A DNA stretch of 64,000 nucleotides from Bacillota bacterium. Its GTDB lineage: Bacteria; Bacillota; Negativicutes; Sporomusales; Sporomusaceae. Below the pieces are notes generated by a model. That model saw only the letters and a list, made by a program, of their open reading frames with translations, did not search any database and was not told the origin of the DNA. The stretch spans positions 1 through 64,000 of the forward strand of contig JAGGAB010000026.1 of the NCBI GenBank assembly GCA_017889705.1, read 5' to 3'. This document shows, piece after piece, positions 7,177 through 53,580 of this stretch. The translations under genes and the position numbers were made by a program. The first letter of the stretch is position 1. Each line of letters starts with the position of its first letter.

Positions 7177-7267
7177 CGCTTCTACAAGCGGGAGTGAGAG
7201 CGGCTAAGTCTTTGGATAAGGGCGACTAACCTTCAGATGGGGGTAAAACCCCACCTGAAGGTTAGTT
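7177..7267 (-). repeat. R1 structured repeat, copy A (partial, in the 5' leader of the PIN-like gene)
   Basis: The hairpin ACTAACCTTCAG...CTGAAGGTTAGT (7225-7266) is followed on the minus strand by CGCCCTTATCC, a shortened second hairpin (GACTTAGCCGCTCT) and CCGCTTGTAGAAGCG. It matches copy H at 38.4 kb over most of its length, but the distal arm of hairpin 2 is missing. It ends 45 bases before the PIN-like start codon. Confidence 0.85.
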
Positions 7268-7312
7268 TTGTAGAATAAGTGAAGTAATTAGTTATAGAGG
7301 GAGAGCAAAACT

Positions 7313-8524
7313 GTGCAAGCTATAATCCAACATATTCATACAGAAGTATCGAAAATAAAGACACTATTAAATGGCCTTAAGGAATATTCTGATCTTATTC
7401 GCTGGAACCATTCCCGGATAAAAATTTCCGGGTTGGGGGATTACCAATGGGATAAGCTAAATGCTGCTGGGCGAGATATTCAGGAACAACTTTTGAAGGC
7501 GTATAACCGCCTATCAGAACAGATTGGCTTTTTGGCAACCCGTCTACCAAGTGAGCAGCAACGTGCTTTGGAAGCTGCATCCGCAAAAATAGTTGCTGTT
7601 ATTACCCAGACAGGTAACTCTTTTTCGATGGATAAAGAAGAATTGTTTGATAATGCAGTACGGGCGCTTGATCTGCAATTGCAAATAGTATCGGCAGCAT
7701 ATGAAATACTGGATAGTCAGTGCCTGATAATTCCCGATATAGCTGCGCTGGTTGCCAATCCGGAGATTGAGGAATGGAAATTCGAAGGCATTGAGAGTTT
7801 CAAGCTGTTATTGCTGCCGACGATAGTGAATGAACTTGATGAAAATACTACAAATACGATGCAAGTAAAGAATAAAATTAAAAATAAAATATTAGAATAT
7901 GCAAAACAAGGCAATATTGCGGTTGGTGTCAACATCAACGGGAATAATGTAATCAAGTTTGCTGGTAATATAAAAGAAATAAAAGAAACACTGCCGGAAC
8001 TTGATGTTCATAACCAATTGGATCAGTTATTAGCAGCTTATTTCGAATTTGTAAGAACCAACCCGCATTCACAGGTTTTGCTTATAACTAACAATCCGGC
8101 TTTGCAGGAAAGAGCACGTGTAGCGAAAGTAAGTTATTTGACAGCACCGGCTTTGCCTGCTGCTAACCCGAGTGTAGCTGTGCAGGCTGCCGATAAACCG
8201 CCGGAAGTCAAACAGGCACAGGTTACCCCAAACCCTGCCGACAGTAGTAATGTTGCCAGACCTACAAGGACGAGGTCGCAAAGAAACAGGGCAGCTGATA
8301 AATTGGCCGCAAATAAGCTGGTGGAAAATAAGGCGGCAGAAAATAAAGCGGTTGCAGCTAAACCTACAAAAATAAAACCGGCAGATAATCGGCCGGATAC
8401 TACTGCGATAAAGATTTCAATGCCACCCGCAATTCCGCAAAGTTCAAAAGTTAAAGCGCCAAAAATAAAGTCAGATCTTTTTAAATCTGATGCCAAGCCA
8501 TTAATCCCAAAACCCAAAAGGTAA
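7313..8524 (+). CDS. PIN-like domain protein with a basic low-complexity tail
   Basis: A 403-residue protein. Residues 1-130 are helical and unrecognised. Residues about 140-275 resemble a PIN nuclease fold: a strand with IIPDIAALVANPEIEEW, then LLLLPTIVNELDEN supplying the second acidic site, and a final strand VLLITNNPALQERARVAKV. In active PIN enzymes the last motif usually has TND; here it is TNN, so one metal-binding Asp may be lost. Residues about 285-403 are a Lys/Ala/Pro-rich disordered tail with repeated ADKLAANKLVENKAAENK-like units, probably binding nucleic acid. The start is GTG with GAGGGAGAG upstream. It is monocistronic, with a repeat hairpin in its leader. The PIN assignment is moderate; a toxin role is not supported because no antitoxin gene is adjacent. 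Confidence 0.6.
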   Translation: MQAIIQHIHTEVSKIKTLLNGLKEYSDLIRWNHSRIKISGLGDYQWDKLNAAGRDIQEQLLKAYNRLSEQIGFLATRLPSEQQRALEAASAKIVAVITQTGNSFSMDKEELFDNAVRALDLQLQIVSAAYEILDSQCLIIPDIAALVANPEIEEWKFEGIESFKLLLLPTIVNELDENTTNTMQVKNKIKNKILEYAKQGNIAVGVNINGNNVIKFAGNIKEIKETLPELDVHNQLDQLLAAYFEFVRTNPHSQVLLITNNPALQERARVAKVSYLTAPALPAANPSVAVQAADKPPEVKQAQVTPNPADSSNVARPTRTRSQRNRAADKLAANKLVENKAAENKAVAAKPTKIKPADNRPDTTAIKISMPPAIPQSSKVKAPKIKSDLFKSDAKPLIPKPKR

Positions 8525-8541
8525 AATATTTGAGCCAACCG

Positions 8542-8577
8542 AAACATAGGCTGTCGTAGATAGCCTATGTTTTTTTG
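8542..8577 (+). terminator. Terminator of the PIN-like gene
   Basis: Stem AAACATAGGCT/AGCCTATGTTT followed by a T run, 18 bases after the stop codon. Confidence 0.9.
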
Positions 8578-8615
8578 TTAGCCAACCAGATAGGCCATTG
8601 CGGTTTGTACTTATC

Positions 8616-8984
8616 TTAAAGATCAGCGCAAGCCGTGTGTTCTTTATTAATTTCCTTTGCGGTAGTGGCATAGTTAAAGCCCCATTGACATAAAGTATCT
8701 AATATCGGCAGAAGGCTTTTGCCGGCAGGGGTAAGTGAATATTCCACTTTAGGTGGAATTTGGGTATAGATATAGCGGTTTACAAGGCCACTTGCCTCCA
8801 ATTCCCGCAACTGCTGTGTTAACATTTTTTGCGTTATTTTGGGTAAGGTTTTCTTTAATTCGCTAAACCGGAGGGTGTTTTCCCCTAAATGCCAGAGAAT
8901 CAGCGCTTTCCACTTACCGCCAATAAGGTCTAAGGTTAATTCCATCGAGCACTGGTACTCTATATGGTTAAAGGTAATCTTCAT
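8616..8984 (-). CDS. HxlR family winged-helix regulator
   Basis: A 122-residue HxlR-type DNA-binding protein. It has the family N-terminus ([20 protein letters not shown]), the recognition region ([20 protein letters not shown]) and the wing ([19 protein letters not shown]). The Cys before the first helix is often the redox or electrophile sensor in this family. I start at the ATG at 8982-8984 because GGGAGTG lies 7 bases upstream; an earlier in-frame ATG at 9057-9059 would add 25 unusual residues. It is divergent from the flavin reductase gene, a common regulator-target arrangement. The last nine codons (KEHTACADL) lie inside a copy of repeat R2. Confidence 0.9.
8618..8649. repeat. R2 repeat fragment within the 3' end of the HxlR gene
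   Basis: AAAGATCAGCGCAAGCCGTG and the following GTTCTTTATTA match the outer arms of the two R2 copies around the phosphofructokinase gene (25.2 and 26.7 kb) with only a few differences over about 30 bases. It supplies the stop region of the HxlR frame. Confidence 0.6.
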
Positions 8985-9215
8985 AGTAATCACTCCCAAT
9001 TTGTCATATTCAAAGCTAGGCTTGTTCAAGACGGTATACAAATAGATACTATCCCACATTAAAGTGCGTACTTGCCTAATTATAGCCTATCATTTAATAT
9101 TAACAGAGAAGACATTTTTTGGGAAGTATTTAATTTCCGCCAGGCACTCATTGCATGACGGAAATGGTTGCCAACACAGTTTCGCCAGTAAAACATGAGA
9201 GGAAGTGTGACTAAG

Positions 9216-9800
9216 TTGAAAGTCATCGCATTTAACGGAAGTCCAAGAGCTAATGGGAATACTGCGCAAAGCCTGCGCTTTGTGCTTGATGAACTGGAAA
9301 AGGAAGGAATCGAGACTGAACTCATTCAATTGGGTGGGCGCAAAGTATTTGGCTGTCTTGCTTGTACCAAATGTTTTAAGAACAAGGATAATCGCTGTAT
9401 TCGGCAGGACGATGAAATGAACACCTTTATTGAAAAAATGATTGAAGCCGACGGCATTCTTATTGGTTCGCCAACATATTTCAGTAATGTTTCTACCGAA
9501 GTTAAGGCCTTAATTGATCGCTGCGGCTTTGTTTCAAAGGCTAACGATGGTAATATACTGCGTGGCAAAGTTGGTGCGGCGGTGGTTTCCGTGCGTAGAG
9601 CGGGTTCAACTTTTGCCTATTCAGCAATTAACTTCTTCTTCGGTATTGCCGAGATGACAATTGCTACCTCCAGCTATTGGAATATGACTTTAGCGCTGCA
9701 TCCGGGCGATGTGCAAAAAGATGAAGAGGGTATCGATACCTTTAAGACTCTTGGGAAAAACATGGCAAAGCTGTTAAAACAAAGAGATGCTAATCGTTAA
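9216..9800 (+). CDS. NADPH-dependent FMN reductase / flavodoxin-like fold protein
   Basis: A flavodoxin-fold oxidoreductase of about 194 residues. The N-terminal phosphate-binding loop is LKVIAFNGSPRANGNTAQS. A cysteine pair follows (GCLACTKCFK plus a third Cys in NRC), as in the iron-sulfur-flavoprotein-related reductases, and the ribityl/FMN loop is GSPTYFSNVSTEVKALIDR. It probably reduces flavins, quinones or nitro compounds with NAD(P)H. The start is uncertain: ATG 9195 has no ribosome site, while TTG 9216 has GAGAGGAAG at good spacing and starts exactly at the conserved strand. It is divergent from HxlR, a likely regulator, and followed 32 bases later by the DUF2148 gene without a terminator. 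Confidence 0.85.
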   Translation: MKVIAFNGSPRANGNTAQSLRFVLDELEKEGIETELIQLGGRKVFGCLACTKCFKNKDNRCIRQDDEMNTFIEKMIEADGILIGSPTYFSNVSTEVKALIDRCGFVSKANDGNILRGKVGAAVVSVRRAGSTFAYSAINFFFGIAEMTIATSSYWNMTLALHPGDVQKDEEGIDTFKTLGKNMAKLLKQRDANR

Positions 9801-9832
9801 GTTATTTAACAAAAACGCAAGGAGGACAGTCG

Positions 9833-10360
9833 ATGATTACTACCAGTCAGGAAATTGAGGAACGTGCAGTGAAACAAATTGCCGACATGATGTGTGTGGC
9901 CGCAAGAACTGCTCCTAAAGCGCGTGGTGTTGACAATTTGGAGACGGCAATTGTTAATGGCAAAGTAAAAGACCAATTAGCAGAAGAAATGCGGCGTATT
10001 GCCCAGGAATCCGGCATGCAGTTTTTTGAGCGTGACGCCAACTGTATTGATAAAGCGCCGTTAGTTGTATTATTAGGTCAGAAAGTAAAACCTATCGGTG
10101 TAAAACCTTGCGGTTTCTGTGGCTATGCGGACTGTGGCGAGTGTGCCCAAGGTTCTGGTAGTTGTGCTATCAGTACCGGGGATTTGGGAATCGCTATTGG
10201 TTCGGCAGTCAACGCGGCTGCTTTGTATCATGCCGATAACCGGGTAATGTTCAGTATTGGTAAAGCGGCTATTAATATTGGCATTTTTGGTGATGAAGTC
10301 AAAATTGCCTATGGAATTCCACTTAGTATAACCGGTAAAAGCCCATTTTTTGATCGCTAA
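9833..10360 (+). CDS. DUF2148 ferredoxin-domain protein
   Basis: A 175-residue cytoplasmic protein of the DUF2148 family, described as containing a ferredoxin domain and found mainly in anaerobes. The N-terminal helix AARTAPKARGVDNLETAIV (24-42) is typical, and the Cys cluster PCGFCGYADCGECAQGSGSC (residues about 92-111) probably binds an Fe-S cluster. The C-terminal half is Ala/Gly-rich (IAIGSAVNAAALY). AAGGAGGACAG precedes the ATG. It is co-oriented with the flavin reductase and likely in one transcript with it. Function is unknown; a redox role fits both composition and context. Confidence 0.88.
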   Translation: MITTSQEIEERAVKQIADMMCVAARTAPKARGVDNLETAIVNGKVKDQLAEEMRRIAQESGMQFFERDANCIDKAPLVVLLGQKVKPIGVKPCGFCGYADCGECAQGSGSCAISTGDLGIAIGSAVNAAALYHADNRVMFSIGKAAINIGIFGDEVKIAYGIPLSITGKSPFFDR

Positions 10361-10399
10361 GTAGCTATTGGGTTAATGTGACGGATTAGGTATTAGCTA

Positions 10400-10454
10400 A
10401 AAACCTGCGAGATAGCTTCCGAAATTGCTTCGGAGTTATTTCGCAGGTTTTTTT
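10400..10454 (+). terminator. Terminator of the flavin reductase/DUF2148 unit
   Basis: Outer stem AAACCTGCGA/TCGCAGGTTT with an inner hairpin (GCTTCCGAA/TTCGGAG), then a T run. Confidence 0.85.
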
Positions 10455-10598
10455 GAAGAGTGGTCGGGTGGTAGTAATGCCGCGTCAAAGTGGCAAGATA
10501 TCTTGGATTATTATAAAATTTTACAAATTAATCCAAGACTTTTCCAACAATAAGATGCGATAGTAATAGTAGGACAATAATTAATAGGGGGCAAAATT

Positions 10599-11129
10599 AT
10601 GAATGCTTTATCTAGTGTAAGTACAGCGGTAACAAACAGTGCCGCTCAGATTAATACTAATCAGACTGCGCAGCAACAAAGTGAAGCTGTAACTGAGCAG
10701 ACTGGTTCAACCACCAGCACGGTTACCGGCACTTCAACTGTTGAAACAAGTGCAACCCAAACAGCTTCCACCGCAGCCAAAATTTCTGCTGCCTATTCGG
10801 TTGAAATTAGCCAGGAAGGCGCACAGCTTGCTGCAGCAGCTGCCTCTACCACAACAACAGATACTTCGACCAGCAGCACGACAGCAACGGCGGCAGCACC
10901 GGCCAGTGCACCTGCAGGCAGTACTGTGGAGACCGAGGAAAGTTCCGAATCCACAACTACTGATCTTTCGCAATATAGTGAAGCCCAGTTAAAAGAAATG
11001 CTGAGTAGCGGTGAAATTACGCAGGCAGAATATGCTGCGGAAATAACTAGTCGCAAGCAGGAAGAAGCGGCAGAGGAAGCTGCTGAAGCTAGCGAATCTG
11101 CCGGATCAGCAATTGATGCTGTGCAATAA
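10599..11129 (+). CDS. Ser/Thr/Ala-rich low-complexity protein with a SHOCT-like motif
   Basis: A 176-residue protein dominated by Ser, Thr, Ala and Gln, without a clear signal peptide or membrane helix. The only recognisable element is near residue 128: YSEAQLKEMLSSGEITQAEY resembles the short C-terminal (SHOCT) oligomerisation motif, pattern LxxMLxxGxITxxEY. The tail is Glu/Ala-rich and likely helical. ATAGGGGGC precedes the ATG. Proteins of this style are seen in Sporomusa-like genomes, but I cannot name a family. Codon use is not obviously foreign. Whether it is cytoplasmic or exported by another route is open. Confidence 0.7.
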   Translation: MNALSSVSTAVTNSAAQINTNQTAQQQSEAVTEQTGSTTSTVTGTSTVETSATQTASTAAKISAAYSVEISQEGAQLAAAAASTTTTDTSTSSTTATAAAPASAPAGSTVETEESSESTTTDLSQYSEAQLKEMLSSGEITQAEYAAEITSRKQEEAAEEAAEASESAGSAIDAVQ

Positions 11130-11133
11130 ATGA

Positions 11134-11372
11134 GACTTAATTCAGATGGGGGGTTAATCCCGCCTGAATTTTAGTCGAATTATCCTAACGTCTAGCCGTT
11201 CGCCTGTGCCCGTAGGGGTATTACACCCGCCTGCTTAAGTGAGCCTTGGGTTTGAAGACCCTTAGAGTGAACTTATTTCGAATTTTACAACCTGTTCCCT
11301 GGACGCCAAGGACAGGGATTACAGGTTGTTAATGAGATAAGGACGGGAGTATTAGAACGGGTTAGTCATCGG
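11134..11372 (+). repeat. R1 structured repeat, copy B, carrying an internal insertion
   Basis: Hairpin 1 is at 11134-11176 (GACTTAATTCAG...CTGAATTTTAGTC). GAATTATCC and the 5' half of hairpin 2 follow (11181-11226), and the 3' half GGACGGGAGTATTAGAACGG lies at 11341-11360. Compared with copy C, about 110 extra bases separate the two halves. These contain their own hairpin, ACAACCTGTTCCCTG...CAGGGATTACAGGTTGT (11287-11329). Confidence 0.8.
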
Positions 11373-11450
11373 AAATATTGCTTTAGAACTTTGCAGGATT
11401 TTATTCCCTTTTGTCTAATAATTTAAAAAATAACAAAAGGGGATGAGGCA

Positions 11451-11645
11451 GTGGAGGCACAATATTTTTGGAAGAGCACGGACGATTTGGAACAAGTGGT
11501 AATTGGCAACGGGGAAATACTTTTGCTTGACAAAAATGGAGCCGCAACAGTAATTGGTGCCACACTTGATGATGCCAGAAGGAGATTGGCAGAGTTAGGT
11601 AAGGATGAAGAGTTTCCTGATTTTATGAATGATTATAATTGGTAA
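11451..11645 (+). CDS. Small hypothetical protein (64 aa)
   Basis: A GTG-start frame with AAAAGGGGATGAGG upstream. The product begins VEAQYFWKSTDDLEQVV and ends DFMNDYNW; it is acidic, soluble and lacks Cys pairs or membrane segments. A good terminator follows immediately. It lies between inverted R1 copies B and C together with a GNAT gene and a carbonic anhydrase gene. I do not recognise the family. Confidence 0.65.
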   Translation: MEAQYFWKSTDDLEQVVIGNGEILLLDKNGAATVIGATLDDARRRLAELGKDEEFPDFMNDYNW

Positions 11646-11670
11646 GCCGCCCGGAGGGCGGCTATTTGTT
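11645..11670 (+). terminator. Terminator of the 64-aa gene
   Basis: A GC-rich 8-bp stem AGCCGCCC/GGGCGGCT overlaps the stop codon and is followed by a T-rich stretch. Confidence 0.75.
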
Positions 11671-11714
11671 TACTCTATTAAGTTGCAAACACAAATGAGG
11701 TAAGGTGTGATAAT

Positions 11715-12143
11715 GTGGAAAATAAAATTGTAATAACTGCAATGGTTATGGCAGACTACAACCAGGTTATCCAGCTTTGGTCAACTTCGGAAGGAATCGG
11801 TTTAAGTGACGCCGATAGTAAAGAAAACCTAGAAAGATTTTTGCAGCGAAATTTGGGACTGAGCTTTGTTGCCAAATCAGGAAGCCAAATCATTGGGGCG
11901 GTACTGGCTGGCCATGACGGACGAAGAGGTTATCTCCATCATCTCTGTGTAAGTTCGGCTTACCGCAGACACGGAATTGGCAGTACTCTGGTGGAAACTT
12001 GTTTGGGAAAACTTAAAGAGCAAGGCATAAAAAAGTGCCACTTGTTTGTCTTTACTACTAACCGGGATGGCCTTATATTCTGGAATAAAATTAAATTTAA
12101 CAGGCGAGAAGAACTGTACCTGTTGTCGAGAAACTTAGATTAA
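11715..12143 (+). CDS. GNAT family N-acetyltransferase
   Basis: A 142-residue GCN5-related acetyltransferase. The acetyl-CoA pyrophosphate loop is YRRHGIGSTLVE (about residues 93-104), preceded by the strand GYLHHLCVSSAYR; the C-terminal FTTNRDGLIFWNKIKFNRRE is the usual final helix-strand. The substrate is unknown. The start is GTG at 11715: the overlapping ATG at 11714 is out of frame and soon hits a stop, and AGGTAAGG lies upstream. The stop overlaps the convergent carbonic anhydrase stop by four bases, so there is no room for a terminator between them. Confidence 0.88.
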   Translation: MENKIVITAMVMADYNQVIQLWSTSEGIGLSDADSKENLERFLQRNLGLSFVAKSGSQIIGAVLAGHDGRRGYLHHLCVSSAYRRHGIGSTLVETCLGKLKEQGIKKCHLFVFTTNRDGLIFWNKIKFNRREELYLLSRNLD

Positions 12144-12769: not shown

Positions 12770-12928
12770 TTGGTCATCTCCTTTGTCTGTTGTAAGTACC
12801 ATTGGTTAAAGCTCGCATGGTTAACAGGCTAGTTAGGAAATGTGCACGTGCAAAGAAGCGTCAGCGGTATTTGAACCCTGTAATGAATGGGGCTTAAGCG
12901 TGGGTGTTCTGCAAACTGGCTTGATTTG

Positions 12929-13070
12929 CCCGATACCTAACCCGTTCTAATACTCCCGTCCTATGTAGGGGGGAGTAATACCTTTACGGGCACAGGCGAA
13001 CGGATAGACGTTAGGCTAATTCGACTAAGATTCAGGTGGGGTTAGAACCCCATCTGAATCTTAGTTGAAT
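12929..13070 (-). repeat. R1 structured repeat, copy C (complete)
   Basis: Read on the minus strand: hairpin 1 ACTAAGATTCAG...CTGAATCTTAGT, then GAATTAGCCTAACG, then a hairpin 2 from CCGTTCGCCTGTGCCCG to GGACGGGAGTATTAGAACGG, ending GGTTAGGTATCGG. It is in opposite orientation to copy B and is the nearest sequence relative of B. The remaining bases of this 525-base gap (12770-13294) hold no gene I trust. Confidence 0.85.
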
Positions 13071-13294
13071 TTATGGCGTCAAGTCGTTTGGTTCAAATCA
13101 AAGGAGGGGTGTATTTATTAAAAGTGCATCAATTCTGTAGAGATATCGTAACAAAAGCAATGCCTACCTACAAACAGATTATTCTGAAAGGTCGGAAAAA
13201 TGAACCGAAATGCTTGTTTTTAAGTCTCAGTTCCTGCCATAAAAAACTTATCTGCCGTTTGCTGAATACAGAACACTAAGGGAGGGGTAAGTTG

Positions 13295-14486: not shown

Positions 14487-14500
14487 GTTGCTCAAAAAAA

Positions 14501-15838: not shown

Positions 15839-15957
15839 GACTTAATTCTGACGGCGTTTTAACGTCGTCTGAATTTTAGTTGAAATTATCCGGGGACTTA
15901 GCCGCACTTTACTCACCGCTTGTAAAGCGGGAGTATTAGAGCAGGTTAGTCATCGGT
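15839..15957 (+). repeat. R1 structured repeat, copy D (complete)
   Basis: Hairpin 1 is GACTTAATTCTGACGGCG...CGTCGTCTGAATTTTAGT, followed by GAAATTATCC, GGGGACTTAGCCGC, the inner hairpin CCGCTTGTAAAGCGG and the closing GAGTATTAGAGCAGGTTAGTC. It divides folT from the accessory genes to the right. The 200 bases after it (15958-16170) show nothing I recognise. Confidence 0.85.
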
Positions 15958-16170: not shown

Positions 16171-16226
16171 TCTTATCGATGACTAATCTTCAGAATGGGG
16201 TTAAAACCTCACCTGAAAGCTAAGTC
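16171..16226 (-). repeat. R1 structured repeat, copy E (hairpin 1 only)
   Basis: GACTAATCTTCAG...CTGAAAGCTAAGTC forms hairpin 1. On its other side is ATCGATAAG, resembling the tail of hairpin 2. It appears to be a deletion derivative, 33 bases upstream of the Cys-rich gene. Confidence 0.75.
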
Positions 16227-19986: not shown

Positions 19987-20066
19987 ATCAAGCTGATGAT
20001 TGTTTCATCAACAAACAGAGACAGTTGTGGCAATGGAAAACCCAAAAATCGGCCATAATAAAAGGA

Positions 20067-20205
20067 GACTACAATACAACAGACGGCGTTAAAGCGCCGT
20101 CTGTATTGTAGTCGAAATTATCCTGATACTCAGCCGTTCTCCTGTGTCCGTGGGTTATGCTCGCACTTGCAGAAGTAGGAATGGTAAAGCGGTTTAGTCA
20201 GTGGG
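20067..20205 (+). repeat. R1 structured repeat, copy F (diverged)
   Basis: Hairpin 1 (20067-20113) has arms GACTACAATACA..AGACGGCG and their complement around TTAAAG. Then come GAAATTATCC, CAGCCGTTCTCCTGTG and a distal AGTAGGAATGGTAAAGCGGTTTAGTC. The arm sequence differs from the other copies but pairing is kept. The rest of the 530-base gap (19987-20516) holds only the gdhA promoter region. Confidence 0.8.
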
Positions 20206-20457
20206 GGACATACAGAAATTGAAAAAATTTAAAATATTTTTCAAGAAATATTTGTTTGTATTCAAAATACAATAATGCATTTAGAAAAAACAAAATAAGC
20301 AGTGTTTCTTGTAACAGGAAAATATAGGTGGGCTGTTTTTAATTAGAATGAATCTGTTCTTTGAGAAGAAACTATAGTGCGCGTTCAGTAGAATAAGGGG
20401 TGGCGATCTGATTGAAAATTCCGTTAAATACAGGTATGCAAAATACAAAACAGGTTG

Positions 20458-36132: not shown

Positions 36133-36173
36133 AACTAACCTGCAGATGGGGTTAAACCCAATCTGCAGGTTAG
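36133..36173. repeat. R1 structured repeat, copy G (hairpin 1 only, between convergent genes)
   Basis: ACTAACCTGCAGATGGGG...CCAATCTGCAGGTTAGT. The T-A pair of copies A and H (CTTCAG/CTGAAG) is replaced by G-C (CTGCAG/CTGCAG), a compensatory change. With T-rich flanks on both sides it may serve as a bidirectional terminator. Confidence 0.82.
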
Positions 36174-36179: not shown

Positions 36180-37067
36180 TTATTTTGAGGGGAATTTGCT
36201 GCGAATTAGTTCGAGAAAGCTTAACATCGCAGGTGTGAGCCATTTGTCTTTATGATAAACGATTTGGGTATGCATCCCAATCTCCGGGCCTTTCCAAGGC
36301 AGTTCGACCAACAGGTTAGCCGTTACTTCTTTTTCAACATAAATTTGAGGCAAAATAGCAATTCCCAGTCCGCTGATAACAAATTGCTTGATTGCCTCAA
36401 TATTTTTTACTTTCATAAAGGAACGAGGCTTTATCGTATTGGCGCTAAGCAGATTCTCGATAAATGTCCGATAAGCGCAGCCTTCCTGGGTAACAATGAA
36501 ATCTTCGGCGCTAAAATCGGAGATATTGATGGCGGCTTGCTGGGCAAGTGGATGGTCAACAGCAGCAATAAAAGCCATAGGTTCTGGGCACAGTATTTCT
36601 GTATAGAGATTGGGGTAAGGTACTTTATCAGTTAAAATAACAGATATATCGATAACATTATTCTTGAGCGCGGCATAGAACTTAGTAATATCACCAAAGG
36701 TAAGCTCTACTTCAATTGCCGGATGTTTTTTGCGGAATTCTTTTAACAGCGAAGGCAGGCGGACAACCGAGAAAGTTTCACTGGCGCCAATAATAATTTT
36801 GCCGCTGGTGGCTTTTGCAGATACGGAATCAGCAGCTTCGTCTATTAGTTTGAGAATTCTTTCGGCATAGCTGATAAAATGTTCGCCTTCGCGAGTTAGG
36901 CGGATACGATGGCCAAGCCTGTCAAATAATTTAACCTGCAGTTCTTTTTCTAATGCTTGAATATGTGCTGTCAGGGTTGGCTGTGTATAGCCCAGATGTT
37001 CGGCGGCTTGAGCAAAGCTTCCGGCAGCTTTAATGGCAACAAGGGTTTGTAGTTGTCTGATTTCCAA
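36180..37067 (-). CDS. LysR family transcriptional regulator
   Basis: A 295-residue LysR-type regulator: N-terminal helix-turn-helix IRQLQTLVAIKAAGSFAQAA and YTQPTLTAHIQALEKELQVK, then a PBP2-type effector domain (about 90-290) containing GKIIIGASETFSVVRLPSLL. It is divergent from the LUD-domain gene, which is the natural candidate for control from the shared 120-base region. The start is the ATG at 37065-37067; the ribosome site is AGGAAGTG. Confidence 0.92.
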   Translation of the reverse strand: MEIRQLQTLVAIKAAGSFAQAAEHLGYTQPTLTAHIQALEKELQVKLFDRLGHRIRLTREGEHFISYAERILKLIDEAADSVSAKATSGKIIIGASETFSVVRLPSLLKEFRKKHPAIEVELTFGDITKFYAALKNNVIDISVILTDKVPYPNLYTEILCPEPMAFIAAVDHPLAQQAAINISDFSAEDFIVTQEGCAYRTFIENLLSANTIKPRSFMKVKNIEAIKQFVISGLGIAILPQIYVEKEVTANLLVELPWKGPEIGMHTQIVYHKDKWLTPAMLSFLELIRSKFPSK

Positions 37068-38394: not shown

Positions 38395-38419
38395 GCATTT
38401 GTAAAAAAAATATAAAGTA

Positions 38420-38543
38420 GACTTATCTTCAGGTGGGGTTTTAACCCTATCTGAAGGTTAGTCGCCCTTATCCAGGGACTTAGCCGCTCTTACTTCCGCT
38501 TGTAGAAGCGGGAGTCTTAGAGCGGGTTAGTCTCAGGATAAAG
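38420..38543 (+). repeat. R1 structured repeat, copy H (complete; best reference copy)
   Basis: Hairpin 1 is at 38420-38463. Hairpin 2 (38466-38543) is closed by CCTTATCC/GGATAAAG and GACT/AGTC, and continues with CCGCTCT/AGAGCGG and CCGCTT/AAGCGG around GTAG. It overlaps the last 11 bases of the SGNH hydrolase gene, which ends in the distal arm. Confidence 0.9.
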
Positions 38544-39771
38544 AATGTTTCTTAATATAGTCCGATACTTTTTGTCCGATGATTCGTTTGCCTGAAATAT
38601 CTAAATGCAGGCCGTCTTGTGCGTATTTTACAGGTAATAAGCCTTGTTCATCAACCACAGGTGAATAGATATCGACATAATCAGGCTGTTGTTTTATAAA
38701 TGCATTTACCTTGAGTAATTCAGTTTGCCAGTTAGGTGCTGTTCCTTCGTTAAAAACACGTTGAATTCGTTCGGGATTTACCGGCGGCAGGGTTAAAAAG
38801 ATGGGGCGGATATTATTCTCGCGGCACTTTTGTTTAATGGCGGCTAATGACTGTACTACATCTTCCGCGCTTGTTCCTCCACGAATACTGTTGCTGCCTC
38901 CCAGGATGAGTAAGTATTTCGGTTTAAACGGCAGTACTTCCTGGTCAAAACGGTTTTCCAAGGCTTCCGCAGTATCACCGCTTTTACCCAGGTTTTTTAC
39001 TTCATAAGGCAAATAGGTTGAGTAATCAAACCGGCCATCAGAAGGGGGATTGGATATTGCGCCACCGCCATGAGTGATACTGTCACCGAAGGTTGCCCAG
39101 TCATAGCCTTCGGTTTTGACTTCTAGTAAAACAGGATCAGAATATACACCAATTGGTCGATTGTCTTTATCATAGGCGAGAACCCGCCAATAATAAATTC
39201 CCTCTTTTAACAGGGGTTCCGGATCATAAAAATCAAATCCCTGGGTGAGAGCATAGGAACGTATTCTATGCTTTGAAGGTTTTATTCCATTTGGCGATTC
39301 AGGAACTTGATCAGTGACTTCCACTTCATATTTGGCAGCACCTTTTACTGGGATCCAGGAATATACAGGGTATAAAGGGACTGGGCGGTCATTATAAAGA
39401 GCTGTAGGTGTTGGTTTGAGTGGATTCAGGGTCATATCACCGAGAACTGCCGGTTGGGAAAAAGGGCCTACAGGGTTTTCATCTAAATCTAGCGGGCGGG
39501 CCCGGAAATAAAGCTTTTTGAGGTCCTGTCCTTCAAATAAGGAAAGTGGTAATTGGACACCAGGGGTATAAATGTTGGATCTGGTATACACAACGTGTTT
39601 TTCCCTTGCCGGAATATCCTTATTTACTGCTACTGTAGCAATTTCTAACTCATACATTACAGCATCTTCAGCATTAGACCATGCCAGTTCGATTCTTCCT
39701 GTCTGCGCACAAGCAAACAGCGTCAGAAAAGTAAAAAGAGCTGTAAACACAATTGTTTTTTTTAGTTGCAA
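38533..39771 (-). CDS. Exported SGNH/GDSL hydrolase with FnIII-like repeats
   Basis: A 412-residue secreted protein. The N-terminal signal (KKTIVFTALFTFLTLFAC) may be a lipoprotein signal with LFAC as lipobox. Two fibronectin-III-like regions follow (IELAWSNAEDAVMYELEIAT; PVYSWIPVKGAAKYEVEVTD with YYWRVLAYDKDNRPIG). The SGNH esterase domain starts at about 228: block I FGDSITHGGG (Ser), block II NLGKSGDT (Gly), block III LILGGSNSIRGG (Asn), block V QDGLHLDISG (Asp, His). The catalytic set is complete. It probably deacylates envelope glycans or lipids. The start is TTG with CTGGAGGCG upstream. Confidence 0.88.
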   Translation of the reverse strand: MQLKKTIVFTALFTFLTLFACAQTGRIELAWSNAEDAVMYELEIATVAVNKDIPAREKHVVYTRSNIYTPGVQLPLSLFEGQDLKKLYFRARPLDLDENPVGPFSQPAVLGDMTLNPLKPTPTALYNDRPVPLYPVYSWIPVKGAAKYEVEVTDQVPESPNGIKPSKHRIRSYALTQGFDFYDPEPLLKEGIYYWRVLAYDKDNRPIGVYSDPVLLEVKTEGYDWATFGDSITHGGGAISNPPSDGRFDYSTYLPYEVKNLGKSGDTAEALENRFDQEVLPFKPKYLLILGGSNSIRGGTSAEDVVQSLAAIKQKCRENNIRPIFLTLPPVNPERIQRVFNEGTAPNWQTELLKVNAFIKQQPDYVDIYSPVVDEQGLLPVKYAQDGLHLDISGKRIIGQKVSDYIKKHSLS

Positions 39772-46691: not shown

Positions 46692-46726
46692 AGAAACACA
46701 TCCTTTTTTAGTTTTTCATATATACC

Positions 46727-48130: not shown

Positions 48131-48244
48131 AGCTCACTCTCCTCCAATATTATTTTTATATAACCCCCTTTTATAGTACCTGCAATTTACCAGTCGGTAT
48201 AGTTTTCTCAACTTTCTAAATAGTTTAGTAAGTAAAGTAAGTGA

Positions 48245-48270
48245 AAAACCAGCCGCTTGGGCTGGTTAAA
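48245..48270 (-). terminator. Terminator of the response regulator gene
   Basis: AAAACCAGCC/GGCTGGTT stem overlapping the regulator stop codon. On the minus strand it ends in a T run. It separates the regulator from the carrier operon. Confidence 0.8.
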
Positions 48271-48970
48271 GATAATGCTTTATTATGCTTGCATCAGTAT
48301 CGACACATTGATATCTATATACTGGCCTGCCTATTGAGCCATAGGTGATTTCTAAATGTAAAACTTCTAAGTTTCTTAAAAAATCCAGATATTTGCGCAT
48401 GGAAACCCGAGAAATGCCCACTCGTCTTGCCATTTCTTCGGTTGTGAAACCGTTGCCCTGCTCAGCCAGAATATTTTCCCACACAACCTTTAGTGTATTG
48501 CGGTCAAGGCCTTTCATCAGCTCAACCTTGCTTGACTGCTCCTTACCTAAAATGCAATGATCAAGCTCGGATTGATTCAAGGTAGGCTGTTCACGCATAC
48601 ATTCGGCACGTGTCTTATAAGCAGAGAGTGCAGCTTCCAGTCTCTCAAATTCAAAGGGCTTAATTAAGTAATCTACTGCTCCGTATTGTAAAGCTTTTTT
48701 TATACTGGGACTGTCACTGGCGGCTGTCACCGCAAGAACATCTACGCTTTTTCCCAGTGTTCGGATTTGTTTTAGCAAATCAAGTCCATCCATTCCCGGC
48801 ATATAGATGTCAAGTAGAACCAGATCAATATCATGCTTATCTAAGAGTTGCAGCGCTGCATCACCTGAACCTGCGGCAGCGATCACTTTGAAGCCTGTCA
48901 TCCGGGCAAGATAGCGCCGGTTTAACTCGGCAACCATTGGGTCATCTTCTACAATCAGCACCTTAATCAT
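48266..48970 (-). CDS. Response regulator, CitB/DcuR/MalR family
   Basis: A 234-residue regulator. Receiver (1-120): IKVLIVEDDPMVAELNRRYL, VLLDIYMPGMDG (phospho-Asp) and YLIKPFEFERL. The C-terminal half contains TLKVVWENILAEQGNGFTTE and the helix-turn-helix EMARRVGISRVSMRKYLDFL, typical of the CitB/DcuR group. The ATG is at 48968-48970, preceded by AAGGGTG; it overlaps the kinase 3' end by eight bases, so the pair is translationally coupled. It is expected to activate the downstream carrier and malic enzyme in response to a C4- or C6-dicarboxylate. Confidence 0.92.
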   Translation of the reverse strand: MIKVLIVEDDPMVAELNRRYLARMTGFKVIAAAGSGDAALQLLDKHDIDLVLLDIYMPGMDGLDLLKQIRTLGKSVDVLAVTAASDSPSIKKALQYGAVDYLIKPFEFERLEAALSAYKTRAECMREQPTLNQSELDHCILGKEQSSKVELMKGLDRNTLKVVWENILAEQGNGFTTEEMARRVGISRVSMRKYLDFLRNLEVLHLEITYGSIGRPVYRYQCVDTDASIIKHYL

Positions 48971-50573
48971 TCTGCACACCCTTGCTTTCGTATGGTAAAG
49001 TTACGATAAACCGTGTACCTTTCCCAGGTTCTGAAAGAACTTCGATTTCGCCGCCAAGTCTGTCCAAACTGCTTTGTACCAGGAAAAGCCCTAAGCCACG
49101 ATTATCGGCTTTGGTGGAATAGCCCTTCGTAAAGATAGCTTCTTGCAATTGTGGACTCATGCCGGGGCCGGTATCGATTACTTCTATATTTAATTCGCTG
49201 TTATCATAGTGAAAATATACGTTAACCCGTTTTACTGTAGAATTGGCTACTGCTTCTAACGCATTCGCCAAAAGATTGCCGACTATTGTGATCAATTCAT
49301 GGTTAACCTCAGGATGATTTGATTCCGGCAGGAAGCTATCTTTTGCCAGTGTAAGTTCTACTCCCAATTCCCTTGCACGGCTTAGTTTTCCTAGCAAAAA
49401 TCCTGCCACTACCGGATCTTTAATCCGGATGCCGACAAAGTTGACTTCGGTTTGCTGGTCATGCGCAATGGTTTTAATATAACTGGCAAGCTGGTCATAA
49501 GACTCCATGCGCACAAGGCCGAGAATTACATGTAACTTATTTCTAAACTCATGAGCCTGGGAACGAAGTGCTTCGGCATAATTACGTACGCCGGTAAGCT
49601 GTTCAGCCAACTGGCTCATTTCGGTTTTGTCCCTAAAAGTGGCAATAGCTCCCACAATCTCACCATTAACAATGATCGGAAAACGATTGGTTAAGATGAT
49701 TACTCCGTGAATATCCTGCTCCTGATCCAATTCGGCCTGGCCGGATGCAAGTACATCGGTAAGTCGGGTGTTGGGGATACATTCATCAACCTTTTTTCCG
49801 GCCGGATCAATGTCGATGCCGGCAAGCTGAAAGAGGCGTGCCGCTTCCTGGTTAACCAAGGTAATGCGAGATTCTTTGTCCACTGAGAGAATGCCCTCCC
49901 TAACCGATTGGAGCATGGCGCTGCGTTCTTCAAGCAGCTTGGCAATCGTAAAAGGCTCTAGGCCAAATAAGGTCTTTTTTATATTGCGGGCCAGCAGCAC
50001 GGCGCCGATAATGCCTACTAGCAGGCCAAGGCCTGTGCCAAAGTAGATAATACTCCGGCCTTGGGCAACTGTTTGCTCAACATCATCAAGCAATATACCA
50101 ACAGAAACCGCGCCCAGTTGTCTACCATCAGGGGCAAATATCGGAGCAAAGGCGCGTAAGGATGGGCCTAATGTCCCCGCAGCAACAGAGACATATTCTT
50201 GGCCCTGGAGTGCCGCAATTTCATCACCGCCGACAAAATGCTGCCCAATTTTGGTTGGATCAGGGTGCGATTTGCGAATACCGTTCATATCCATCACGAC
50301 AATAAACTCTACCTTGGTTACTCCCAAGAGATAGTTGGTAAAGGTCTGTATATCTGTGTCATCGCGCTGCGTATTTAACGCCTCAATCACTACAAGTGAA
50401 CAGGCTGTCATGCGGGCAATGTCAGAGGCTTTTTCAGCCAGATTTTTTTGCGTATTTTCAGCGATGTGACTGCTGATCAGCACATTGGTCATCAGCAACG
50501 CCAGAGCAACAACCCCGCATACCAGCAGAGTGATTTTAGTTTGCAAACTGACATATGGTTTTTTTAACGCCAA
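48963..50573 (-). CDS. Sensor histidine kinase, CitA/DcuS/MalK family
   Basis: A 536-residue membrane kinase. TM1 is at about 15-35. The periplasmic single-Cache (PDC) domain (about 40-175) contains FIVVMDMNGIRKSHPDPTKI and GQHFVGGDEI, the DcuS/CitA ligand-pocket region. TM2 is at about 178-198, then a PAS domain (SVREGILSVDKESRITLVNQ). The HisKA-like SPOB region with acceptor His is in EALRSQAHEFRNKLHVILGL. HATPase_c follows (GNLLANALEAV, DTGPGMSPQ, NRGLGLFLV). It probably senses malate, fumarate, succinate or citrate. It is paired with the following regulator. Confidence 0.93.
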   Translation of the reverse strand: MALKKPYVSLQTKITLLVCGVVALALLMTNVLISSHIAENTQKNLAEKASDIARMTACSLVVIEALNTQRDDTDIQTFTNYLLGVTKVEFIVVMDMNGIRKSHPDPTKIGQHFVGGDEIAALQGQEYVSVAAGTLGPSLRAFAPIFAPDGRQLGAVSVGILLDDVEQTVAQGRSIIYFGTGLGLLVGIIGAVLLARNIKKTLFGLEPFTIAKLLEERSAMLQSVREGILSVDKESRITLVNQEAARLFQLAGIDIDPAGKKVDECIPNTRLTDVLASGQAELDQEQDIHGVIILTNRFPIIVNGEIVGAIATFRDKTEMSQLAEQLTGVRNYAEALRSQAHEFRNKLHVILGLVRMESYDQLASYIKTIAHDQQTEVNFVGIRIKDPVVAGFLLGKLSRARELGVELTLAKDSFLPESNHPEVNHELITIVGNLLANALEAVANSTVKRVNVYFHYDNSELNIEVIDTGPGMSPQLQEAIFTKGYSTKADNRGLGLFLVQSSLDRLGGEIEVLSEPGKGTRFIVTLPYESKGVQND

Positions 50574-50909
50574 CTAGTATCACTCCTAATGCTAAGGTAA
50601 GTATTGGATGAACTATTTTTTACGGCTTGGGTGTAGGCTTTATTACTACAGTTATGATTTTGTTTAATTATACCGGAAACAAAGATAAAAAACCACTAAA
50701 GCAACTGTGGCTTTCTCCACTTCCGACTTATTATTTAGCCAATCAAGACGCATAGCGAAGGCAATAAAATCTTCTCAACAATTGATAATTTTAACAGGGA
50801 AACTAATACGAATATAGAATAATAACCATGTTGCTTTGAAAAGGAAACTATGGTTAGTTTTGCGTAATAGCGCTAATCATATAGAAACCCATAAAAGGAG
50901 TGTCATATT
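50574..50909. other. 336-base intergenic region between the malate system and pagL-like gene
   Basis: A/T-rich, divergent promoter region. I see no gene, RNA family or repeat in it. Promoters for the kinase (minus) and the PagL-like gene (plus) should lie here but no convincing boxes stand out. Confidence 0.5.
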
Positions 50910-51476
50910 GTGCGTAGATTGATTTGTCTAGCTATTGTCATTAATTTTCTGCTGATTTTCCTGCCTGAAAACTCTTACTGCTATGCAGCTAACTCCGAGT
51001 TTGAGCTGGAGTGGGACTACTTGAATTCTTCCAATAATGACCGTGAGCTTGATACGGTATCATTACATATACTTAAGAAAATTTCTGAAACAAAAAATAA
51101 GTCTATATATAGAGGGATTACAATCACTCGACCGCTTGGAAACGTAACTCTTGAGAACCAGACACAATCACAAGACAGTTCTGCTGTCGGCATTGGACCC
51201 ATTTACATGTTTCGCACTGAAAAACATTATCCGGGAAAGCTATCGGCGGCATTTGATATAAGCGGTGGAGTTATCTTATATGACAAACCTTTTCCCGCAG
51301 GAGGTCGATATTATGATTTCATGTGGCGGCTGGGGCCTAAATTCATTTATAAAATCAACGAAACCTCATCAATAAATGTCGGATATATGCTAATGCATGT
51401 TTCTAACGGTTTTAAAACTCATAATCCTGGGTATGATGCCCACGGACTTTCCTTGGGGTTTGTGACAAAGTTTTAA
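50910..51476 (+). CDS. PagL-like lipid A 3-O-deacylase (outer membrane)
   Basis: A 188-residue protein with a signal peptide (RRLICLAIVINFLLIFLPEN, SYCYA) and alternating beta strands of an eight-stranded outer-membrane barrel ending in FVTKF (terminal Phe). The active-site region MHVSNGFKTHNPGYDAHGLS holds the PagL/acyloxyacyl-hydrolase His-x-Ser-Asn motif and the NPG turn. It would remove an acyl chain from lipid A. The start is GTG with AAAGGAGTG upstream. Its presence shows that the host has an LPS outer membrane, fitting the Negativicutes. Confidence 0.85.
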   Translation: MRRLICLAIVINFLLIFLPENSYCYAANSEFELEWDYLNSSNNDRELDTVSLHILKKISETKNKSIYRGITITRPLGNVTLENQTQSQDSSAVGIGPIYMFRTEKHYPGKLSAAFDISGGVILYDKPFPAGGRYYDFMWRLGPKFIYKINETSSINVGYMLMHVSNGFKTHNPGYDAHGLSLGFVTKF

Positions 51477-51485
51477 ATCGTTCAA

Positions 51486-51530
51486 GATGATCTAACTGTG
51501 GTAAGTTTGCAAAGTTGATTTTGAGACGTT
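51486..51530 (+). pseudogene. Fragment related to the 50-aa gene at 45.2 kb
   Basis: Forty of 46 aligned bases match 45231-45276 (encoding DDTNCGKLAKLILSR), with one deleted base that breaks the frame. Flanks do not match. It appears to be a relic of a second copy. Confidence 0.55.
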
Positions 51531-51649
51531 AAGAAAGACATTACCACCGTCCCTGATCTTCCTATCATGGAATACCAAGGGATGGTTTATAGTTTCCTTA
51601 AAAATGGTATGATATGATTTAAGCTTTTTATCAAAGGAGGTCGACAAAT

Positions 51650-51775
51650 ATGGGAAAAGGTTCACCGAAATCCAGTTATAAAAATATCCAAAAGGCTACT
51701 AAAAGTTCTAAGTTTGCTATTGGCCGACAGGCGGAAAAAAATACAATATTTAACCGTAAAGAAAAGCAGAAGTGA
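51650..51775 (+). CDS. Small basic hypothetical protein (41 aa)
   Basis: An ATG with AAAGGAGGTCG ten bases upstream. The product GKGSPKSSYKNIQKATKSSK, then FAIGRQAEKNTIFNRKEKQK is strongly basic, without hydrophobic stretches; it could bind nucleic acid. A perfect terminator follows. The family is not recognised. Confidence 0.65.
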   Translation: MGKGSPKSSYKNIQKATKSSKFAIGRQAEKNTIFNRKEKQK

Positions 51776-51784
51776 CAGAATAGT

Positions 51785-51815
51785 AAACTTCAAGAGTAGT
51801 TAACTCTTGAAGTTT
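51785..51815 (+). terminator. Terminator of the 41-aa gene
   Basis: A 13-bp perfect stem AAACTTCAAGAGT with its complement, followed by T. Confidence 0.9.
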
Positions 51816-51970
51816 TTTGCTTAATATTATGTTTTATACAAAAAATAGTTGTGAATAAATGTATTTTCGTCATATTTTTGACACAAATCAAATGTATAAT
51901 ATGAGAAAGAAATCCGTAAATTTCCCTTAGTTTGATAAAACGACTATATCTGGTTGAAAAGAGGAATCCT

Positions 51971-52738
51971 ATGATAAAAAAAATTATCCCATTATATACT
52001 GCACTTATTATTATTTTTTCAGGCGTAACAGCTAATGCAGCGCCGGCATTAGAAAAAGAAATAATCAATGATTTAAAACAGTTTAATGGACAAGTTGGTG
52101 TATTTGCCAAAAACTTAAAAACGGAAAAAACAATAAAATATAACCAGGATACTATTTTCCCGACTGCCTCTACAAGTAAGCTTATTGTTGCTTTAGCTAC
52201 ATATAAATATCTTTATCCCAAAGCACCAACCTACAAACAGAATGAGTATGATCAAGACATTGACCTGATGATAAAAGTAAGTGATAATACTACATTTGAA
52301 GCATTGTTGAATGAGTTTGACACAACAAAAAAAGACGGGTTTGATAAAGTTGAGCGGGATTTACGCTTAAGTAAGACGGAAATCCATGATGAACAGGCGT
52401 TTAAAAAATACAGTTATCATAGTGTAACAACGCCTTATGAGATGTCAAAGGTTCTCGAGACCATATATAAGGAAAAATATATTGATAAAAAACAGGTACG
52501 GCGATTAAAGGATGATCTGGCCAACACCATCTTCCAGGATGAAATTCCCCGCTATATGCAAGTGCCGGTATTTCATAAAGTGGGTGAACTAGATGATGTG
52601 CTTTGTGATGTGGGTGTCATTCAGGACGGACATGATCCAATTTTAATCAGCTTTTACACCCGCACAGGTGATCATAGCTATTCCAGTGACTTTATTGCGA
52701 CTGTATCAGCAAAACTTTACAATGCATTGCGGAGATAA
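51971..52738 (+). CDS. Exported serine hydrolase, class A beta-lactamase-like
   Basis: A 255-residue secreted protein of the PBP/beta-lactamase fold. The signal peptide is IKKIIPLYTALIIIFSGVTA. Motif 1 SxxK is in FPTASTSKLIVALATYKYL, motif 2 SDN in MIKVSDNTTFEALLNEF, and motif 3 reads HKVGELDD, with KVG in place of KTG. The omega-loop Glu region of true class A enzymes is not clear. It may be a weak beta-lactamase or a D,D-peptidase-like enzyme. I start at ATG 51971, with AGAGGAATCC upstream, rather than 51932. Single gene with its own terminator. Confidence 0.82.
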   Translation: MIKKIIPLYTALIIIFSGVTANAAPALEKEIINDLKQFNGQVGVFAKNLKTEKTIKYNQDTIFPTASTSKLIVALATYKYLYPKAPTYKQNEYDQDIDLMIKVSDNTTFEALLNEFDTTKKDGFDKVERDLRLSKTEIHDEQAFKKYSYHSVTTPYEMSKVLETIYKEKYIDKKQVRRLKDDLANTIFQDEIPRYMQVPVFHKVGELDDVLCDVGVIQDGHDPILISFYTRTGDHSYSSDFIATVSAKLYNALRR

Positions 52739-52753
52739 TCAAAAGTAAGGGAT

Positions 52754-52807
52754 AAGGGACGATTCTTAGCTTGAATGCTTAAAAATTCAAGTCAAGAATC
52801 GTCCCTT
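52754..52807 (+). terminator. Terminator of the beta-lactamase-like gene
   Basis: Stem AAGGGACGATTCTT with its complement, plus an inner CTTGAAT/ATTCAAG stem. Confidence 0.9.
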
Positions 52808-52918
52808 TGTATCAGATGAATTTCTACCTGCCTAGTGATATAATAATGATATCGGCTTAGTGTGATTCCAAAAGGCCACGCCTAGCCTGCTCCCTTGTCC
52901 TTGAAAGGAGTAAAAAGT

Positions 52919-53434
52919 ATGAACAATACAGATATTCAAAATGTTGGACCAGCAGCCAAATATAAAATCAAAGAGCATCTTGTAAGAAATGTTTACCATG
53001 AATATCAGGAACAACAAACTCTTGGTCAGCGCATTGCTGACAACGTAGCAAGGGTAGTCGGCAGTTGGCCGTTTATTATTTGGCAAAGTATTGTGATTAC
53101 AATTTGGGTGGCAGTCAACGTATATCTGGTTTATATGAAAGTATTTGATCCTAGTTATTTTAACGCATGGGATCCGTATCCATTTATTCTACTTAACCTT
53201 GTGTTAAGTTTCCAGGCGGCTTATACAGGGCCGGTAGTGATGATGAGTCAAAATAGGCAAGCCGAAAAAGATCGATTAATGGCAGAACAAGATTACCAAA
53301 TTAATAAAAAAGCGGAAGAGGAAATTAAGGTTATAATGGCCCACTTGGTACATCAAGATGCGTTTATGGATAAGCTCATGGTCCGATTAGAAAAGCTGGG
53401 AAATGGTTATGAAAGTAAAGGTGGCGGGGAATAA
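52919..53434 (+). CDS. DUF1003 membrane protein
   Basis: A 171-residue protein of the DUF1003 family. A soluble N-terminal part (residues 1-40) leads into GQRIADNVARVVGSWPFIIW, then two membrane helices (QSIVITIWVAVNVYLVY; PFILLNLVLSFQAAYTGPVV) followed by the conserved MMSQNRQAEKDRLMAEQDYQ and a coiled-coil tail. Function is unknown. I start at ATG 52919, with GAAAGGAG upstream; the earlier in-frame start lacks a ribosome site. Confidence 0.88.
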   Translation: MNNTDIQNVGPAAKYKIKEHLVRNVYHEYQEQQTLGQRIADNVARVVGSWPFIIWQSIVITIWVAVNVYLVYMKVFDPSYFNAWDPYPFILLNLVLSFQAAYTGPVVMMSQNRQAEKDRLMAEQDYQINKKAEEEIKVIMAHLVHQDAFMDKLMVRLEKLGNGYESKGGGE

Positions 53435-53488
53435 GTGTCGAAAAGGCTGAAGCTATAAGTCCGGGCGGCTAATTCCCATAATAAATGA

Positions 53489-53580
53489 GACTACAATTCA
53501 GGCCGCATTAAACGCCATTTGAATTGTAGTCTTATTTGCATTTATGGCTAATGTTTAGGAATGGTAGAACCGTCGCACCG
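53489..53580 (+). repeat. R1 structured repeat, copy I (diverged, hairpin 2 degraded)
   Basis: Hairpin 1 is at 53489-53531 (GACTACAATTCAGGCCGC...GCCATTTGAATTGTAGTC). Downstream AGGAATGGTAGAACCG resembles the distal part of copy F. The rest of hairpin 2 is not recognisable. Confidence 0.72.

What the first reader, a model, noticed from the sequence alone, without database searches (positions are those of the whole stretch)
7177..53580. A family of nine two-hairpin intergenic repeats (R1) with compensatory changes
Seen directly: nine related elements lie at 7177-7267, 11134-11372, 12929-13070, 15839-15957, 16171-16226, 20067-20205, 36133-36173, 38420-38543 and 53489-53580. The full form (copies C, D, H) is hairpin 1 (ends GACTA/TAGTC, loop TTTTAA-like) followed by hairpin 2, closed by TTATCC/GGATAA and CCGCTCT/AGAGCGG. 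Hairpin 1 arm sequences vary (CTTCAG, CTGCAG, ATTCAG, AATACA) but each has a matching partner arm. That suggests selection for RNA or DNA structure, or mobility by a hairpin-recognising enzyme such as a TnpA_REP-like transposase. All copies are intergenic. I know of no named family that fits.
Basis: partly seen in the sequence, partly recalled or inferred. Interest (0 to 1): 0.85.

Follow-up and report, generated by a model that had tools for sequence, protein, structure and literature searches.

The report
Mobile two-hairpin repeat inserting after TAA
The window carries copies of a roughly 130-base, protein-free mobile DNA element that folds into two hairpins and inserts just after the sequence TAA, sometimes a gene's own stop codon; it belongs to a patchy, phylum-wide family whose moving enzyme is still unknown.

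Summary
In detail: nine related two-hairpin elements lie at the stated places, plus one remnant (5270-5314). The host genome has about 100 copies. The family is patchy: 29 of 60 genomes (own and relatives), 26 of 199 of a phylum sample (own included). No Rfam family matches. Arms co-vary: 18 of 21 pairs change on both sides, 0 of 500 shuffles.

R1 is a non-autonomous mobile element. Between two sister genomes, 6 of 12 orthologous places compared are occupied in one and empty in the other. Five of the six join as insertion 3' of TAA without target duplication; one differs by 4 bases. The left TAA is the stop codon of a frame of at least 100 codons in 17 of 92 copies, against 30 of 572 intergenic-like control TAAs. 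The fold is better on the strand carrying TAA.

Long copies (window B) carry a second two-hairpin element, M, in a hairpin loop.

The enzyme is unknown. IS110 is not needed; a Y1 HUH transposase is my unproven best guess. Closest known kinds: Bacillus cereus bcr1 repeats (TTTAT motif), pneumococcal BOX, REP, IS200/IS605 derivatives.

The parts
   Evidence: BLAST with copies B, D, F, I; sequence read
7177..7267 (-). copy A: hairpin 1 and the 5' half of hairpin 2; right end lost
   Evidence: CM hit 7152-7275 minus, 49.6 bits
11126..11373 (+). copy B: long form; left TAA is the stop codon of ORF 10599-11129
   Evidence: nine further long copies with M elsewhere in the genome
11236..11338 (+). element M nested in the loop of hairpin 2 of copy B
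   Evidence: 93% match to the M module; M stands alone in other genomes
12925..13074 (-). copy C: R1 with an extra hairpin
   Evidence: CM 99 bits
15831..15961 (+). copy D: full short form
   Evidence: CM 120.4 bits
16172..16234 (-). copy E: hairpin 1 plus right end only
20059..20209 (+). copy F: R1 with an extra hairpin; perfect GACTACAATAC hairpin 1
   Evidence: CM 83 bits
36133..36183 (-). copy G: hairpin 1 plus right end; left TAA is the stop codon of ORF 36180-37067 (minus)
38412..38542 (+). copy H: full short form, the type copy used as query
   Evidence: CM 141.4 bits
53481..53580 (+). copy I: decayed; hairpin 1 intact, hairpin 2 degraded
   Evidence: only a weak CM hit on the mirror strand, 31.4 bits, E 0.0012

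Best explanation
R1 is a non-autonomous mobile element without a protein, moved by an enzyme acting in trans. The unit begins just after a genomic TAA (usually ATAA), carries hairpin 1, an internal TTATCC, hairpin 2 and its own right end GGATAA, and ends there. Insertion places this unit 3' of TAA, target consensus TAA|AT, without duplicating the target. Because TAA can be a stop codon, part of the copies land harmlessly right behind genes in sense orientation. The internal TTATCC is complementary to the GGATAA right end, and its TTAT to the ATAA at the left, so one strand could bring both ends together. Shown here: the anatomy, the covariation, the target, the empty sites, the co-occurrence with M, the strand asymmetry and the patchy phylum-wide spread. 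Inferred: that polymorphic places are gains rather than exact losses, that the active form is the folded single TAA strand, and that the enzyme is a HUH Y1 transposase of the IS200/IS605-RAYT kind. I put the Y1 step at about 0.4.
For: About 100 copies. Six occupied/empty orthologous pairs between G031 and G067, with flanks 92-99% identical; five fit insertion 3' of TAA with no base duplicated or lost at the junction. Left TAA in 94 of 100 copies, against 295 of 1960 random 9-base stretches of the flanks; the right end reads TAA in 54, CAA in 16, other in 8 and is not found by the pattern in 22, and in all 16 copies with right CAA the left is TAA, so the two ends are not copies of one target. 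Stop-codon overlap 17 of 92 against 30 of 572 intergenic-like TAAs or 46 of 2365 TAAs of the left flanks. Covariation 0 of 500 shuffles. G-U against A-C pairs 56:14 on the union of pairs from both strand folds, and the plus strand folds better in 49 of 70 copies. R1-bearing genomes have a Y1 gene in 28 of 29 cases, R1-free ones in 17 of 31. The two sister genomes have only long RAYT-type Y1 genes.
Against: No transposase gene flanked by R1 ends was found. Of 52 fetched Y1 loci (some overlapping), 51 have no R1 model hit and one (G031) has an R1 about 4 kb away; a weak hairpin-1-like BLAST hit near a Y1 fragment of G043 (E 3e-4) is not a model hit. No transposase recurs among the 25 largest protein clusters next to the copies. 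RAYTs of G000, G003, G040 and G055 have other palindromes. No consistent replication-strand bias, which single-strand transposition often shows. One of six empty sites differs from the joined flanks by 4 bases, and one has small indels further out. Two genomes alone do not say whether a place was gained or exactly lost. An R1-R1 tandem (L129) is joined at GGACAA, not TAA.
Confidence: 0.75

Rival explanations
1. A site-specific recombinase (tyrosine or serine type) inserts a circular R1 unit at TAA(A), as suggested for bcr1 and its TTTAT motif.
For: ATAA(A) (TTTAT on the other strand) at both ends in many copies; exact junctions; [quoted passage not shown]
Against: A 3-5 base core is very short for such enzymes; 16 copies have right CAA with left TAA and none has CAA at both ends, unlike a shared core.
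Confidence: 0.25
2. R1 is mainly a functional RNA or 3'-UTR element kept by the host, and its spread is a by-product.
For: Strong covariation, better fold on one strand, placement right after stop codons in 17 of 92 copies.
Against: Patchy distribution, polymorphism between sister species, truncated and decayed copies, no recurring special neighbour.
Confidence: 0.1
3. R1 is a classical MITE moved by a DDE transposase.
For: Size, copy number, intergenic position, weak similarity of the two ends.
Against: No target duplication in 5 of 6 empty sites; no clear terminal inverted repeats; covariation of two internal hairpins instead.
Confidence: 0.08
4. An RNA-guided IS110-type recombinase moves R1.
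For: Structured element, no target duplication.
Against: No IS110 gene at E<=1e-5 in R1-rich genomes G000, G019, G031, G040, G043, G049 and G055; 12 of 29 R1-bearing genomes lack it.
Confidence: 0.02

Closest known systems
Bacillus cereus group repeats (bcr1 and its group)
   Same: 100-400 bp repeats, bcr1 in tens of copies per genome, mobile-element features, one or more TTTAT motifs (PMC6542083, passages). The detail that TTTAT flanks each end of bcr1 is recalled from papers not held.
   Different: R1 gave no blastn match among 72,556 plasmid records, which is only weak evidence on bcr1. bcr1 is described as restricted to the B. cereus group; R1 is patchy across the phylum.
Pneumococcal BOX elements
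   Same: Modular, folded, probably parasitic repeats with a variable number of internal modules, and repeats inserted in one another (PMC3049150, passages).
   Different: BOX has been linked to ISSpn2 by terminal inverted repeats and varies by boxB number; R1 has two covarying hairpins and a TAA target.
REP sequences with RAYT transposases
   Same: Folded palindromes; many R1 copies have GTAG or GGAG at the 5' foot of hairpin 1, like the GTAG start of many REPs (PMC2817692, passages).
   Different: REPs are 20-40 bp single palindromes (PMC3733652, abstract start in listing); RAYTs of these genomes carry other repeats.
IS200/IS605 elements and their derivatives
   Same: Sub-terminal hairpins, insertion 3' of a short fixed sequence, no target duplication (family features recalled, except sub-terminal palindromes: PMC6542083).
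   Different: No transposase gene, no IS with these ends found, left guide sequence not evident.

Membership tests
Rfam RNA families | score above the gathering threshold of a family | tested here: not met
   0 matches in the window; long form only a chance hit of 7.6 bits against a threshold of 90
classical MITE (DDE) | target-site duplication on insertion | tested here: not met
   5 of 6 occupied/empty pairs without duplication, one ambiguous
classical MITE (DDE) | clear terminal inverted repeats shared with a host IS | tested here: inconclusive
   ends only loosely similar by eye; no IS with these ends found in the fetched loci
IS200/IS605 derivative | insertion 3' of a fixed short target, no duplication | tested here: met
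   (5 of 6 pairs)
IS200/IS605 derivative | ends shared with an autonomous Y1-coding element | tested here: not met
   none at 52 fetched Y1 loci, some overlapping; not an exhaustive search of all genomes
REP/RAYT | RAYT gene flanked by the repeat | tested here: not met
   RAYT flanks read carry other repeats, a partial one or none, not R1
bcr1-type repeats | TTTAT motif at each end | tested here: met
   on the plus strand TAA at left in 94 of 100 copies (ATAA in 89% of 95) and G[AG]TAA at right in 54 of 100
bcr1-type repeats | sequence homology to bcr1 | not testable with these tools
   bcr1 sequence not at hand; papers not held
IS110 | IS110 gene in the genomes with many copies | tested here: not met
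   0 matches in G000 and G031 and five other R1-rich genomes

The most novel reading that the evidence does not exclude
R1 and M represent a phylum-wide class of protein-free mobile elements in which one folded strand, held together by an internal TTAT(CC) that is complementary to both ends, is inserted 3' of TAA without duplication by an enzyme not yet recognised, so that genes' stop codons can serve as safe landing sites.
Probability: 0.3. Interest if true: 0.85.

Novelty: new variant of a known kind. Interest (0 to 1): 0.62.

Why it matters
Small structured repeats such as bcr1, BOX and REP have long been known, but how many of them move is unsettled. R1 gives a clean case: a covarying fold, a simple target rule, natural empty sites in two sister species, and a list of genomes with and without it. 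The enzyme can now be sought by direct tests. Insertion outside genes, in part right behind stop codons, would also help to explain how a parasite reaches about a hundred copies without breaking genes, and it adds hairpins to the 3' ends of some transcripts.

Tried and rejected
A search for an autonomous partner failed. Among the fetched loci none holds both a lone hairpin 1 and a lone hairpin 2. The 25 largest clusters of proteins near copies look, by eye and not by a family search, like household families such as ABC transporters and chemoreceptors. No R1 lies in the 30 Y1 loci, and one lies about 4 kb from one of the 22 further Y1 loci.

Replication-strand bias was tested on two complete genomes and none was consistent. 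In G031 copies are sparse near the terminus (3 of 56 in deciles 4 to 6), in G003 they are not (20 of 61), so I drew no conclusion.

Five stretches (93 kb) of four congeners that cover parts of the window's gene order hold no R1 hit at E<=1e-6 (L256-L260), but gene order there is too changed for base-level empty sites.

M differs between the sister genomes at three shared R1 loci. I do not count these as insertions, because the loop sequences do not join exactly and exchange between copies is possible. DNA searches of plasmids and phages and exact-pattern scans of viral contigs found nothing (M was not searched in phages).

Corrected on re-check: the columns were chosen with patterns that demand TAA at the left and T or C at the right, so its '100% T' is by construction; one search repeats the comparison without that condition and adds a stricter stop-codon control (5% instead of 2%). 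Rows dropped: 25 of 127 overlapping, mostly mirror-strand CM hits and one duplicate; one copy fetched twice (L004, L054) is still counted twice and was removed. The places compared were not a random sample: they lie in stretches fetched because elements were known or expected there. Two of 19 elements had no ortholog in what I had fetched; the other 17 are 12 distinct places. RNAalifold chose the pairs used for counting, so the G-U to A-C ratio was repeated on pairs from both strands. On pairs common to both folds it is 18:6 (p 0.02) and, in the phylum alignment, 13:7 (p 0.26), so that evidence is moderate. The phylum alignment A5 leaves out one genome's short copy (L371) and includes low-scoring rows (55-61 bits) that may belong to sister families.
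Full report
What is there. The nine elements are real, with a tenth remnant at 5270-5314. The unit of 131 positions reads, on its plus strand: genomic ATAA, a short link, hairpin 1 (GACTT...TTAGTC with a TTTTAA-like loop), a link with TTATCC, hairpin 2, and the right end GGATAA. D and H are full short copies; the others are truncated, longer or decayed. An alignment of 32 copies gave a covariance model. With it I found 127 hits at E<=1e-6 in 87 sources of the host genome, 102 after overlapping hits and 100 after two duplicates were dropped. No copy of 95 with enough flank lies inside a spanning open frame of at least 150 codons, against 269 of 475 control segments.

Structure. Within the genome 11 of 33 pairs change on both sides and no shuffle of 500 reaches the observed values. 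On 28 sequences (21 from different genomes of the phylum sample, 3 from named records, 4 from the own genome) 18 of 21 pairs change on both sides and 91.5% of cells pair, against 71.3% in shuffles and 31-47% when slid. For example the lower arms GACTTAGCCGCTCT and AGAGCGGGTTAGTC become GGCTTAGCGCCACT and AGTGGCGGTTAGCC. Some mismatches look conserved themselves: T opposite T in CTTAG/GTTAG. The plus strand, the one carrying TAA, folds better than the minus strand in 49 of 70 short copies, and G-U exceeds A-C 56 to 14 on the pairs of both folds. On pairs common to both folds the excess is smaller (18 to 6; 13 to 7 in the phylum set, not significant). The structure therefore seems to matter in one strand, as RNA or as single-stranded DNA; the data do not tell which.

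Range. R1 occurs in 29 of 60 genomes, the own included, at E<=1e-4 and in 26 of 199 genomes of an even phylum sample at E<=1e-6: the own genome and 25 outside the class. Named records with an exact core pattern are Sporomusa malonica (15 of 24 stretches), S. silvacetica, S. acidovorans, Pectinatus haikarae, a Massilibacillus MAG, two other MAGs and Desulfosporosinus sp. PR. Equal contig lengths identify G005, G008 and G004 with the three Sporomusa species, so the window's genus is probably Sporomusa. No plasmid or phage record and no viral contig matched.

A second family. Copy B is a long form with nine further copies holding M in the genome. M is a two-hairpin element of its own: it stands alone in G019, G021 and G033, and its core occurs in 10 of 300 class genomes, the own included. 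M has the same plan: ATAA, hairpin, TTAT or a relative of it, hairpin, GATAA. In R1 it sits in the loop of hairpin 2. There are direct tandems: R1-R1 joined at GGACAA (L129) and M-M joined at GAGATAAGTG (L153, L159).

Insertion. At the left end 94 of 100 copies have TAA, against 295 of 1960 random stretches of the same length; ATAA is the rule (89% of 95) and bases further left are near random. The right end reads TAA in 54, CAA in 16, other in 8, and was not found by the pattern in 22; all 16 copies with right CAA have left TAA. Just outside the right end A (75%) then T (52%) are favoured in 56 copies. Left and right are thus not two copies of one target. In 17 of 92 copies the left TAA is the stop codon of a frame of at least 100 codons, against 30 of 572 intergenic-like TAAs or 46 of 2365 TAAs overall; in the window this holds for B and G. 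The decisive evidence is the sister pair G031 and G067. Of 19 elements tested, 17 had an ortholog, in 12 distinct places: six occupied in one genome and empty in the other (two one way, four the other), three shared, three shared but with M only in G067. In five of the six the empty site equals the joined flanks at the junction, with substitutions and, in some, small indels further out: for instance GTAGTTATAA|ATACTTTC becomes GTAGTTATAA|R1|ATACTTTC. One differs by four bases. R1 therefore inserts, or leaves, exactly 3' of TAA, without target duplication; with the high copy number I read this as insertion.

Enzyme. Absence of duplication and a fixed 5' target speak against DDE transposases. 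IS110 genes are missing from seven R1-rich genomes. Y1 genes are present in 28 of 29 R1-bearing genomes, the exception being a 72% complete one, and in 17 of 31 R1-free ones; genome size and kinship confound this. The two sister genomes have one and two Y1 genes, all of the long RAYT type, one of them shared. Yet R1 does not flank the Y1 genes examined, and RAYTs of the own genome and several relatives have other palindromes. No transposase recurs next to R1 and no consistent replication-strand bias is seen. Other enzyme families were not surveyed. The Y1 step is a guess of about 0.4.

Comparison. Rfam has no such family. In the paper searches made I saw no description of this repeat; that library lacks most subscription journals, among them the two main bcr papers. 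[quoted passage not shown] BOX is similarly modular (PMC3049150, passages). Many REPs start with GTAG at the palindrome (PMC2817692, passages). IS200/IS605 features are largely recalled. I file R1 as a new variant of the known kind of small structured non-autonomous repeats, not as a member of any named family.

Noticed in passing
L214 (G000:C106:1-3027): Intact RAYT-type Y1 gene of about 255 residues in the host genome, flanked by GGGACAAGGAACCTGTCCC-like repeats, unrelated by eye to R1.
   Followed up: partly
L139, L147, L150, L154, L157 (G033), L140 (G019), L141 (G021): Element M as an independent two-hairpin family with a conserved core near CCTTAGAGCGAACTTANTTCGA.
   Followed up: partly
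G031:C1: R1 copies are sparse around the replication terminus (3 of 56 in deciles 4 to 6); not so in G003 (20 of 61).
   Followed up: no
L153, L159 (G031): Two M units in tandem inside one R1, which suggests step-wise nesting.
   Followed up: partly
window 38417-38420; L006:1498-1501: GTAG or GGAG directly at the foot of hairpin 1, resembling the GTAG start of many REP sequences.
   Followed up: no
L092 (Desulfosporosinus sp. PR): A close R1 copy in a record named for a genus that is, from memory, outside this class; the contig could be a contaminant of the assembly.
   Followed up: no
window 38533-38543: The right end of copy H supplies the end of ORF 38533-39771 on the minus strand.
   Followed up: no
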